64,000 bases of DNA from Thermococcus paralvinellae (lineage in GTDB: Archaea; Methanobacteriota_B; Thermococci; Thermococcales; Thermococcaceae), in contig NZ_CP006965.1 in NCBI RefSeq assembly GCF_000517445.1, positions 1,030,681 to 1,094,680 of the forward strand, in the 5' to 3' direction. Of the stretch, positions 3,109-55,566 are shown piece after piece. Made by a program: the position numbers and the translations under genes. How positions within the stretch are numbered: position 1 is the stretch's first letter; every line of letters begins with the position of its first letter. The notes beneath the pieces were generated by a model, which saw nothing but the letters and a program-made list of their open reading frames with translations, was not told where the DNA came from and did no database searches.

Positions 3109-3564
3109 ATGGAATTTAAGGTTGTAGAGAGAAAAATAGGATGGCACAAAGACTTTGATAGTTCGCATTTTTTAGTTCTGCCTTATGATAGCAAATGCTT
3201 GAGAATTCATGGGCATACTTACAACGTTGATGTCGAGATTTGGGGAGACTTAGATGAGAGAGGCATGATTTTTGACTTCAATCACTTAAGCAATCTCATT
3301 AAGGAAGTTGATCATCGCATTTTAACAAGTATCAAGTGGATTAAAGAGGATGGAGACTACATAATCATAGTTCAAAATGACAAAGAGCTCAAACTTCCAA
3401 AAAATGAAGTAGTGCTAATTGATGCTCCCAATGTTACTGCTGAGCTTATAGCGGAGTGGTTTGCAAAGAAGATAGCAGAAAAAGCCGGGAATAATGTAAA
3501 GCGAATAAAAGTCAAAGTCTGGGAAGATCCAAGAAGCTATGCCGAAATAATTTTGGAACGTTAA
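3109..3564 (+). CDS. queD: 6-pyruvoyl-tetrahydropterin synthase / QueD family protein
   Basis: The protein carries the family metal ligands: a His in the SSHFL segment and a CLRIHGHTY motif. Its Cys-x3-HGH spacing is that of QueD-like 6-carboxytetrahydropterin synthases. A later VDHRIL segment gives another active-site His. QueD makes 6-carboxy-5,6,7,8-tetrahydropterin from dihydroneopterin triphosphate on the route to preQ0 and archaeosine. I take ATG 3109, preceded by GGTGAG, over the upstream GTG codons, giving about 151 residues. Some archaeal members have other pterin roles, so the exact product is not certain. Confidence 0.8.
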   Translation: MEFKVVERKIGWHKDFDSSHFLVLPYDSKCLRIHGHTYNVDVEIWGDLDERGMIFDFNHLSNLIKEVDHRILTSIKWIKEDGDYIIIVQNDKELKLPKNEVVLIDAPNVTAELIAEWFAKKIAEKAGNNVKRIKVKVWEDPRSYAEIILER

Positions 3565-52097: not shown

Positions 52098-52358
52098 CTA
52101 AAGACCTAAAATGTTTCCAATAATCCAAATGACAACTGCACTAAAAACCATACCAACTGCTATCCCAACAGTTCTGAGCTTGGGGTATTTTAGTTCAAAG
52201 AGTCTTTGAAATCCGGAAATGGACAGATCAAATAGCAAGAACACAAAGAACCACCATAAAAATAAATAGGGCAAACTTAAAGATAGGATATTTCTGAATA
52301 GCAGTGTGAGAATCCCTGCTACAAGGAAATACCTTCCCATACGCTTTAAATATTCCAA
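52098..52358 (-). CDS. Small membrane protein (86 aa), third gene of the halocin-like operon
   Basis: It has three hydrophobic stretches (YFLVAGILTLLFRNILSL, LPYLFLWWFFVFLLFDLSI and VGIAVGMVFSAVVIWIIGNI). A TTG start at 52358 follows GGGAGGTG by seven bases. It lies 48 bases behind another membrane gene and the broken halocin-like gene on the same strand. A role in export of, or self-protection against, the peptide is plausible from position only. Confidence 0.6.
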   Translation of the reverse strand: MEYLKRMGRYFLVAGILTLLFRNILSLSLPYLFLWWFFVFLLFDLSISGFQRLFELKYPKLRTVGIAVGMVFSAVVIWIIGNILGL

Positions 52359-52406
52359 CCTTGAACACCTCCCTCAATTATGGGGTCCTTTATCTTCAGG
52401 GTTAGT

Positions 52407-52793
52407 CTAAAACAGAGTTGTATTATTTTTAATGCTGCCTCTTTTTTCTTCCATATAAACAAAGGGGATAACAAGGATTCCAATTATTCCGGCTATCAGA
52501 AAGTCTCTGCTGTATTGGCCATATCCAAGAATCTTTGTAAGTATGCTCCAAATAAACTCAATAGATACCGCAAATAATACAGCAATAGTAACTTTGAGCT
52601 TCTTTTTTTGAGCATAATAGAGAATTGCCAAAGGTGCTAAAAAGAATGCTGAGGCAAGTAAAATTCCTCGAATTAATTCGAACGATAATTCCAAAAATGT
52701 GGATGGTTTATGAACAATAATATCACTATACCCTATTGTCAGCATGAGGAAGAAGGAAAATACAAAAAGCTTTCTCACGTCTACCTTTCTCAT
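52407..52793 (-). CDS. Four-helix membrane protein, second gene of the halocin-like operon
   Basis: The 128-residue protein has four hydrophobic helices (LFVFSFFLMLTIGYSDIIV, LIRGILLASAFFLAPLAIL, VTIAVLFAVSIEFIWSIL and FLIAGIIGILVIPFVYM). ATG 52793, five bases after GAGGTGA, begins 11 bases past the halocin-like stop codon, so co-translation is likely. No family is recognised. Its place right behind a bacteriocin-like precursor suggests a transport or immunity function. Confidence 0.65.
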   Translation of the reverse strand: MRKVDVRKLFVFSFFLMLTIGYSDIIVHKPSTFLELSFELIRGILLASAFFLAPLAILYYAQKKKLKVTIAVLFAVSIEFIWSILTKILGYGQYSRDFLIAGIIGILVIPFVYMEEKRGSIKNNTTLF

Positions 52794-52803
52794 ATTGTTC
52801 ACC

Positions 52804-53520
52804 TCATGAGCCGTGATAAACACAAGCTGTGCCCCACTCTAAACAATTGCTATCAACACACCATGCACAATTAACAACTACACATGCTAGACATACAAAG
52901 CAACCTATCTTATGTATTATGCAGGTAGCACAAATTGCTCCACAGTTTCCTGCTTGCATACAACACCTAATAGCTTCATTCCAATTATGGACACAGCAAT
53001 ATCTCTCACAATATTCATTTACTCCACTACAATCGGAATTTGTGGAACATTCATGAGCACAAGAACTCAATGGAGTAATGTACCCATTTGTGCTTAGTGT
53101 CTGAGTCGTTACTTTGTTTTCCTCTAAACTGAACAGATATGCCCTTGTTTTGACTCCTTGTACGGGTTTTGAGAATTCGTAGTAAGCTATTACGTGCTTG
53201 CCATCTTTTAAGGGGATCCCCATGGCAAGCATTGTTATCTTCTCCCCATTATAATCTAAGGTGTGCTTCACTATTTTAACGTTCTTGTATTCAATCTCCT
53301 AGGGTTTTGCCAACCCTCTAATATCCTTGCTTAATACAGCCTTAAAGAACACATGAATCCTTGACCAATTCTCGGCCTTTCTTTCTAAAGGCTTAACTTC
53401 CCTAAAAGGATTCACACAGCCCTTAACTTCTGGAAGCTTTGGATTGTTCAAAGCATACGCTGCATACGCTCCAACCACCAATAATACTACAAAAATGACC
53501 AACAATGTCCTCTTCCTCAT
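52804..53520 (-). pseudogene. Halocin-C8-like bacteriocin precursor, interrupted by in-frame TAG
   Basis: From ATG 53520 one frame runs to 52804 (238 codons) with a single amber codon at position 74 (53299-53301). Before it are a signal or anchor segment (TLLVIFVVLLVVGAYAAYAL) and a polar part ending IRGLAKP. After it, EIEYKNVKIVKHTLDY leads through a propeptide to a C-terminal domain with 18 cysteines (for example CCMQAGNCGAICATC and CFVCLACVVVNCAWC). This composition and layout resemble the halocin C8 precursor, in which the N-terminal part gives immunity and the C-terminal part is the antimicrobial. No ribosome binding site precedes the GTG at 53271, so internal restart looks unlikely. Confidence 0.65.
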
Positions 53521-53558
53521 TCGCCCCCCCCAACGGGTTATCATATAACATTTGCAAC

Positions 53559-54488: not shown

Positions 54489-54588
54489 GTCAGCTGACTT
54501 TAATTCTCTCGACGAGTCTTCTTTAATTTCTTAACTTTTGAATTTGGGGTGCTTCAACTTTGTAGGAGCATTTGTGAACATTGTAAAA

Positions 54589-54611
54589 AATTTTATATAC
54601 ACCAATGTATA
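54589..54611 (+). promoter_or_regulatory. Promoter of the caspase-like gene with TATACA/TGTATA dyad
   Basis: A TATA box TTTTATATAC is fused to the dyad TATACA-CCAA-TGTATA (54596-54611). The start of transcription would be near 54620, just before GGTGAT and ATG 54631. A repressor on this dyad would block the TATA box. Confidence 0.5.
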
Positions 54612-54630
54612 CCTCGTGGCGGTGATATCC

Positions 54631-55566
54631 ATGAAGAGATTTTCAGCAATTTTGTTAATAGCCATAGTGTTGTTCAGCATGCCATTGGCATTTTCCCAAC
54701 CAAGACACAAGATAGACTTTTCAAAGCCACTTTATGCAGAAGACGTACATATTGGCAAGAAGATAACCGTCGATTACATCCCCAGAGCTGGAACTAGAGG
54801 ACGAGGTGGGCCCCCAAGCTCAACTACAACCTCAGCAGCCACCGGCATTTTAGGTGAACCTGTTGCCGGAGAAAAATACGCAATCGTGATTGGAATTGCA
54901 GATTATCCAGGTACTTCAAACGACCTGCAATACACAGATGATGATGCGCTATTAGTCTATGACACTCTTGTCAACGTCTATGGATTCAAGCCAGAGAACA
55001 TAATCCTCTTGATAAACATGAGTGCCAGCTTTGATAACATCTATAATGCTATTATGACGCTTAAATCAAAAGTAACCCCAGATGATGAAGTTGTCTTCTA
55101 TTTCAGCGGTCACGGTTCAACTGGCAGAGCAGCCGATGGGGACAGCGAAGTAATTGACGAAGCAATTGTGGTTCACGATGGAAATCCTGATGGGCAGATA
55201 TTGCTCATCTGGGATGGACAGCTCAAGGCATGGTTTGAAGACTTCCCAACAAGCAGAGTGATTTTCATCTTTGACAGCTGTTACTCAGGTGGAATGACTG
55301 ACCTAGCAGCAGACGGCAGAATAGTAGCCATGGCATCTGGAGAAAGAGAGTTCTCACTCGAAAGCGCTGAGTGGGGCCACGGACAGTTCACCTACTACTT
55401 CTTCCTTGAAGGCATTAACCTTGGCTATGCAGACGTTTATGACCATGACGGAGACCCAACAACTTCAGATGTCACAGTTGAAGAAGCATTTGACTATGCC
55501 TACGCAAACTGTGAGCAGCAGACACCAGTTATAGCGGATTTATTCACGAATGATCTGCTACCTTGA
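54631..55566 (+). CDS. Secreted caspase-like cysteine peptidase (C14 family)
   Basis: A 311-residue protein with a signal peptide (FSAILLIAIVLFSMPLAF) and a short polar linker rich in Gly, Thr and Ser. The caspase fold follows: KYAIVIGIADYPGTSNDLQY, VVFYFSGHGSTG with the catalytic His, and FIFDSCYSGGM with the catalytic Cys. An acidic loop (DVYDHDGDPTTSDVTVEE) may bind calcium. No interaction domains follow. Start ATG 54631 lies after GGTGAT. It is probably exported and may act on surface or foreign proteins. Confidence 0.88.
   Translation: MKRFSAILLIAIVLFSMPLAFSQPRHKIDFSKPLYAEDVHIGKKITVDYIPRAGTRGRGGPPSSTTTSAATGILGEPVAGEKYAIVIGIADYPGTSNDLQYTDDDALLVYDTLVNVYGFKPENIILLINMSASFDNIYNAIMTLKSKVTPDDEVVFYFSGHGSTGRAADGDSEVIDEAIVVHDGNPDGQILLIWDGQLKAWFEDFPTSRVIFIFDSCYSGGMTDLAADGRIVAMASGEREFSLESAEWGHGQFTYYFFLEGINLGYADVYDHDGDPTTSDVTVEEAFDYAYANCEQQTPVIADLFTNDLLP

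What the first reader, a model, noticed from the sequence alone, without database searches (positions are those of the whole stretch)
52804..53520. Halocin-C8-like bacteriocin precursor with an in-frame amber codon
The two open stretches are in the same frame, separated only by TAG at 53299-53301. The C-terminal domain has 18 cysteines in a halocin-C8-like pattern and the N-terminal part carries a signal or anchor. A hyperthermophile antimicrobial peptide locus would be of real interest. The stop could mean recent loss, readthrough, or a base error.
Basis: partly seen in the sequence, partly recalled or inferred. Interest (0 to 1): 0.75.

Follow-up and report, generated by a model that had tools for sequence, protein, structure and literature searches.

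The report
Broken archaeal toxin with intact immunity
A heat-loving archaeon carries a secreted, cysteine-rich, probably antimicrobial protein gene killed by one stop codon next to an intact partner membrane gene; relatives show that the toxin-like end and its partner are swapped between species as a matched cassette, which suggests an unrecognised system of microbial competition.

Summary
An in-frame TAG at 53299-53301 splits a 238-codon gene, and the C-terminal domain has 18 cysteines. All 28 intact relatives aligned have TGG (Trp) at that codon, so this is a single nonsense mutation or a base error. Conserved readthrough and a two-gene arrangement are not supported. 'Halocin C8-like' is not supported: TIGR04449 does not match, and profile comparison with real TIGR04449 proteins of other Thermococcus finds nothing.

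The gene belongs to a Thermococcaceae-centred family without a Pfam or NCBIfam name: signal/anchor, conserved N-domain, hypervariable Cys-rich C-domain (always an even Cys number, 14-20). Directly downstream lies a small membrane protein whose sequence tracks the C-domain type (r=0.70), not the N-domain (r=0.10). DNA comparison shows clean cassette replacement between conserved flanks. Other loci hold orphan partner genes, arrays of up to four, and dead toxin genes beside intact partners.

Best reading: a polymorphic bacteriocin-immunity cassette system; the window is an immune non-producer with a recently killed type-A toxin and intact immunity gene (52407-52793). Killing and immunity are inferred, not shown. 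A 2019 survey I could not read may list the family.

The parts
52804..53520 (-). Toxin-like precursor gene, 238 codons with internal TAG, then TGA; a nonsense pseudogene as sequenced
53449..53517 (-). Signal peptide or membrane anchor helix (residues 2-24)
   Evidence: sequence; helix 2-24 in the model of intact relative L005
53143..53418 (-). Conserved N-domain (about residues 35-126), helices plus antiparallel strands
   Evidence: alignment A1; model of L005
53299..53301 (-). In-frame TAG at codon 74; TGG (Trp) in 28 of 28 intact relatives
53083..53088 (-). Invariant Asn-Gly (residues 145-146) a few residues before the Cys-rich domain; possible processing site (inferred)
52807..53061 (-). 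Hypervariable Cys-rich C-domain, 18 Cys, type A (relatives L003, L004, L005)
52407..52793 (-). Predicted cognate immunity protein, 128 aa, four predicted membrane helices; starts 10 nt after the toxin stop, with GAGGTGA just upstream
52247..53139 (-). Approximate extent of the exchanged cassette (C-domain plus immunity gene): the stretch without DNA similarity between window and G090, with about 90% identity on both sides
52098..52358 (-). Conserved 86-aa membrane ORF at and beyond the downstream cassette border; probably not part of the pair

Best explanation
The locus is one allele of a polymorphic bacteriocin-immunity cassette system of Thermococcaceae. Inferred working: the precursor is exported by its N-terminal signal/anchor; the conserved N-domain carries it; the disulfide-rich C-domain, perhaps released by cleavage near the invariant Asn-Gly, kills related cells, probably at the membrane; and the small multi-TM protein encoded directly downstream protects the producer. 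The C-domain and its immunity gene are replaced together as a cassette of about 0.9 kb by recombination between conserved flanks, and old immunity genes may be kept as orphans. In the window the type-A toxin has been killed by a TGG-to-TAG change while the type-A immunity gene stays intact, giving an immune non-producer. Shown here: the stop, conservation of Trp74, the co-variation, the DNA mosaics, orphan and array partner genes, and dead toxin genes beside intact partners. Inferred: secretion, cleavage, killing, membrane target, immunity.
For: Nonsense change: TGG in 28/28 relatives. Partner gene: all 29 loci have a co-directional TM protein directly downstream, 28 of them between a 54-nt overlap and a 13-nt gap and one at 126 nt. 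Co-variation: partner similarity correlates with C-domain similarity (r 0.70, 0 of 2000 permutations as high), not with N-domain similarity (r 0.10). Partners are detectably homologous in 20 of 26 pairs with the same C type and 1 of 380 pairs with different C types (pairs are not independent). The window partner matches a model of type-A partners, built without it, at 2.6e-17. Mosaic DNA: window vs G090 is about 90% identical up to nt 381 of the gene and again from nt 1273, with nothing between; same pattern in L005/L012, L007/L017, L010/L015. C types need 22 changes on the N-domain tree, as many as shuffled labels (22.4). Type-A partner found in 11 of 94 genomes: 3 with intact type-A toxin, 2 with it broken (window, G087), 6 orphans. 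Dead toxin remnants sit before arrays of different partner types. Retained partners show dN/dS 0.11-0.45. G087 lost the toxin by deletion but keeps a 98% identical partner. Even Cys counts in 29/29 C-domains.
Against: No killing, secretion, processing or immunity has been shown. No Pfam, NCBIfam, PDB or fold match names a toxin activity. Six same-type pairs have partners without significant pairwise similarity (e.g. L027 vs L006/L017; L014 vs L008), so partner replacement or undetected homology must be assumed. The window partner is only 26-36% identical to its type-A counterparts, and one cross-type pair (window and L011 partners) is also weakly similar. No dedicated exporter or protease is consistently linked. 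dN/dS values of orphan partners rest on few substitutions.
Confidence: 0.72

Rival explanations
1. Polymorphic signal and receptor, or self-nonself recognition: the Cys-rich domain is a secreted or surface specificity factor and the small membrane protein is its matched receptor or partner, without killing.
For: The co-variation and cassette swapping fit any matched pair. A Thermococcales locus with variable C-terminal ends and matched membrane proteins, VARTIG, was left open between conflict, immunity and self-recognition (PMC8416519).
Against: Arrays of several different partner genes kept while the secreted protein is dead or absent are what is expected of immunity genes, less so of receptors. 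The partners have no recognisable signalling domain.
Confidence: 0.17
2. True halocin C8 family member: a bacteriocin of the TIGR04449 family that has diverged.
For: Similar architecture: secreted precursor with conserved N part and Cys-rich C-domain; TIGR04449 genes do occur in other Thermococcus.
Against: No TIGR04449 match; profile-profile probability 0.2%; halocin C8 was reported to have production and immunity directed by a single gene (Sun 2005, title as cited in PMC12893001), whereas here a separate matched gene follows.
Confidence: 0.04
3. The TAG is a sequencing or assembly error and the strain is a producer (compatible with the cassette model, changes only the state of this copy).
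For: Single base change, otherwise intact gene with dN/dS 0.036 just after the stop; no reads available here.
Against: Loss of the toxin with retention of the partner is common in the family: G087, G067, G050, G042, G070, G071, G082, G014, G016, G023, G061.
Confidence: 0.25
4. Functional readthrough or recoding of the amber codon.
For: The downstream frame is intact and constrained.
Against: No relative has a stop at this codon (28/28 TGG); no PylS above its cut-off in the genome, only weak matches of the kind that ring in most control genomes. Amber-suppressor tRNAs were not searched genome-wide.
Confidence: 0.03

Closest known systems
Halocin C8 family (NCBIfam TIGR04449, halocin_C8_dom)
   Same: Secreted precursor, conserved N-terminal part, Cys-rich C-terminal domain; archaeal; a different gene of this family is found in seven Thermococcus genomes
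   Different: No sequence or profile similarity in either domain; 14-20 Cys, always even, in the C-domain; separate matched membrane protein downstream
Polymorphic toxin systems (Zhang et al. 2012, PMC3482391)
   Same: Conserved N part, exchangeable C-terminal domain, matched downstream immunity gene, orphan immunity genes and remnant modules
   Different: Small precursor (about 240 aa) with a disulfide-rich C-domain instead of a long delivery protein with an enzymatic toxin; no linked delivery machine seen
VARTIG modules of Thermococcales (PMC8416519)
   Same: Same archaeal group, hypervariable C-terminal end, inter-species recombination, subfamily-matched membrane proteins
   Different: VARTIG proteins are long Ig-domain proteins; here no Ig domain was detected and the variable part is Cys-rich
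Immunity gene arrays of Vibrio cholerae T6SS clusters (PMC5361080)
   Same: A new effector-immunity pair displaces the old effector while old immunity genes remain downstream
   Different: Contact-dependent injected effectors of a bacterium; here a putative secreted archaeal protein

Membership tests
Halocin C8 family (TIGR04449) | Match of the C-terminal domain to the TIGR04449 model | tested here: not met
   positive control L051 1.4e-11 and six genomes over cut-off
Halocin C8 family (TIGR04449) | Profile similarity to known family members over the precursor | tested here: not met
   hhalign A2 vs A3, probability 0.2%
Halocin C8 family (TIGR04449) | Production and immunity directed by one gene (title of Sun et al. 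2005) | tested here: inconclusive
   Not testable directly; a separate co-varying membrane gene points the other way
Halocin C8 family (TIGR04449) | Proteolytic release of an antimicrobial C-terminal peptide | not testable with these tools
   Invariant Asn-Gly before the domain is only suggestive
Polymorphic toxin system | Conserved N-terminal part joined to many unrelated or highly diverged C-terminal domains | tested here: met
   13 C types in 29 loci at the threshold used, N-C correlation 0.14
Polymorphic toxin system | Candidate immunity gene directly downstream that co-varies with the C-domain | tested here: met
Polymorphic toxin system | Cassette exchange by recombination and orphan modules | tested here: met
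Polymorphic toxin system | Recognisable toxin domain | tested here: not met
   No Pfam, NCBIfam, PDB or fold match; hence 'works like', not 'is a proven member'
Polymorphic toxin system | Toxicity and specific protection by the immunity protein | not testable with these tools
   Needs an experiment
VARTIG | Immunoglobulin domains | tested here: not met
   Pfam and PDB fold searches give no Ig match for the toxin-like protein

The most novel reading that the evidence does not exclude
An undescribed class of hyperthermophile bacteriocins, unrelated to halocins, in which a disulfide-rich toxin domain and its multi-TM immunity protein move between Thermococcaceae species (and perhaps to Archaeoglobus) as a recombining cassette at fixed chromosomal sites, producing producer, immune non-producer and immunity-hoarder genotypes.
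Probability: 0.5. Interest if true: 0.75.

Novelty: new variant of a known kind. Interest (0 to 1): 0.62.

Why it matters
Intermicrobial conflict in hyperthermophilic archaea rests on predictions; the 2021 review of Thermococcales modules says that archaeal polymorphic toxin systems had not been characterised experimentally (PMC8416519). This family offers small, secreted-looking, disulfide-rich candidates with named partner genes in cultivable Pyrococcus and Thermococcus, so killing and immunity can be tested directly. The natural series of intact, broken and orphan loci also allows a test of producer, immune-cheater and sensitive dynamics. If active, heat-stable Cys-rich peptides would be of practical interest.

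Tried and rejected
Halocin C8 membership: rejected. Conserved two-gene or conserved-stop arrangement: rejected. Recoding by pyrrolysine: no PylS above cut-off. Solved structures: only a chance-level match to omwaprin, a WAP-type peptide, E 0.24 over the first Cys motif; fold searches gave no match below E 0.1. Plasmids and viral contigs: none. A search with Pfam PF16122 was a wrongly guessed accession and is not evidence. The model of the window partner protein is low confidence (pLDDT 61), so only its four helices are used. The neighbouring caspase-like protein (54538-55566) was considered as the processing enzyme and set aside: it is found next to the gene only in the same-site genomes G089 and G090. 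Laying out the whole genome to look for suppressor tRNAs was not possible. The 2019 mBio survey of archaeal antimicrobial peptides and polymorphic toxins is not held.

Full report
WHAT IS THERE. The finding's coordinates hold, but the gene is on the minus strand. From 53520 down to 52804 the frame reads 73 codons, TAG (53299-53301), 164 codons and TGA. The product has a hydrophobic N-terminal stretch and a C-terminal domain with 18 Cys. Ten nucleotides after its stop, preceded by GAGGTGA, starts a 128-aa ORF (52793-52407) with four predicted membrane helices. The window lies in a single-contig genome of 1,957,742 bases in the Thermococcaceae.

THE STOP. A six-frame search of 94 Thermococcaceae genomes found matches in 48 at E<=0.01; 30 genomes other than the window's own hold an intact full-length gene. 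All 28 intact relatives aligned have TGG at the codon that is TAG here, so one base separates this copy from the family. Between window and G090, dN/dS is 0.14 before and 0.036 just after the stop within the N-domain, so the lesion is very young or a base error. No relative shows a stop there, and the genome has no PylS above cut-off; readthrough is unsupported. Reinitiation downstream would give a product without its signal (inference).

NOT A HALOCIN. NCBIfam and Pfam give no family for the protein. TIGR04449 does not ring in this genome but does in seven other Thermococcus genomes, in different genes. Profile comparison of the two families finds nothing. The model of an intact type-A relative is confident (pLDDT 86.9, pTM 0.80) and has no significant match in the PDB or viral libraries.

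A TWO-GENE CASSETTE. The first 125 or so residues are conserved across genera; the C-domain is not. In all 29 loci examined a small TM protein follows on the same strand, in 28 of them between a 54-nt overlap and a 13-nt gap. Its similarity follows the C-domain (r 0.70, 0 of 2000 permutations) and not the N-domain (r 0.10); N and C are themselves nearly uncorrelated (0.14). With C types clustered, partners are detectably related in 20 of 26 same-type pairs and 1 of 380 different-type pairs (pairs are not independent, so the exact p-value is not used). C types need 22 changes on the N-domain tree, no fewer than shuffled labels. At DNA level, window and G090 are about 90% identical through nt 381 of the gene, share nothing over the C-domain and partner, and are 91% identical again from nt 1273; the same is seen in L005/L012, L007/L017 and L010/L015. 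In L017 the partner of the L007 type survives, 93% identical in DNA, as a second gene behind L017's own pair. These are direct signs of replacement of C-domain plus partner as a unit.

ORPHANS AND LOSSES. A model of the type-A partner finds 11 of 94 genomes: three with an intact type-A toxin, two with it broken (window; G087, where nearly the whole toxin gene is deleted and the partner is 98% identical), four behind other toxin types and two without a toxin (most of these are rows of the model, so the informative parts are the absence elsewhere and the extra orphans). Remnant toxins sit before two to four partner ORFs of different types in G014, G016, G023 and G061. Other dead toxin genes beside partner-like ORFs occur in G067, G050, G042, G070, G071 and G082. 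Retained partners show dN/dS of 0.11-0.45 on small numbers of changes. Remnants of C-domains lie downstream in L062 and L043.

HOW IT PROBABLY WORKS. Even Cys counts in every C-domain (14-20) and exactly one Cys in every N-domain suggest full disulfide pairing (inference). An invariant Asn-Gly precedes the domain and may mark processing (speculation). With a signal/anchor, a matched membrane partner, orphan partner arrays and repeated loss of the secreted gene alone, a secreted toxin with a membrane immunity protein is the simplest account. The window would then be an immune non-producer. Killing, immunity, export and cleavage are not shown.

COMPARISON. The genetics match polymorphic toxin systems (PMC3482391), and orphan immunity arrays resemble those of V. 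cholerae T6SS clusters (PMC5361080). In Thermococcales the nearest published analogue I could read is VARTIG (PMC8416519), whose proteins are long Ig-domain proteins. I found no paper describing this family, but the survey most likely to mention it (mBio 2019, e00715-19) is not in the library, so novelty is provisional.

LIMITS. Genomes are one per species, so strain-level timing is unknown. Partner assignment uses simple ORF and hydrophobicity rules. The Archaeoglobus homolog rests on one MAG contig (L094). Six same-type pairs lack detectable partner similarity and remain unexplained.

Noticed in passing
L051-L055; L053 513-1007 (-): True TIGR04449 (halocin C8-type) genes occur in other Thermococcus genomes; their C-domains also vary, and in L053 a second, different C-terminal module lies downstream, so that family may use the same cassette logic.
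   Followed up: partly
L094 3995-4702 (+): A MAG assigned to Archaeoglobus (UBA230) holds an intact relative at 47% identity, followed by three small hydrophobic ORFs; possible transfer outside Thermococci, or contamination.
   Followed up: partly
window 53524-53531 (-) and upstream of relatives' start codons: A run of G just before the ATG (8 in the window, 2 to 12 in relatives, mostly 5-8) sits where a ribosome-binding site would be; a variable homopolymer there could alter translation.
   Followed up: no
L115 2980-3795 (-): In G022 the first 19 or so residues of this family are joined to an unrelated, apparently secreted 271-aa protein.
   Followed up: no
window 54538-55566 (+): A probably secreted caspase-domain protein (Peptidase_C14, 3e-14) is encoded close to the toxin-like gene on the opposite strand.
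   Followed up: partly
L113, L114, L116, L034: Arrays of two to four different partner (immunity-like) genes behind a dead toxin gene.
   Followed up: partly
L117 2988-3260 (+); L118 2957-3307 (-): Two Pyrococcus-group genomes without a toxin gene keep a distant or degraded type-A partner; L118 also has a C-domain remnant upstream (3325-3453).
   Followed up: partly
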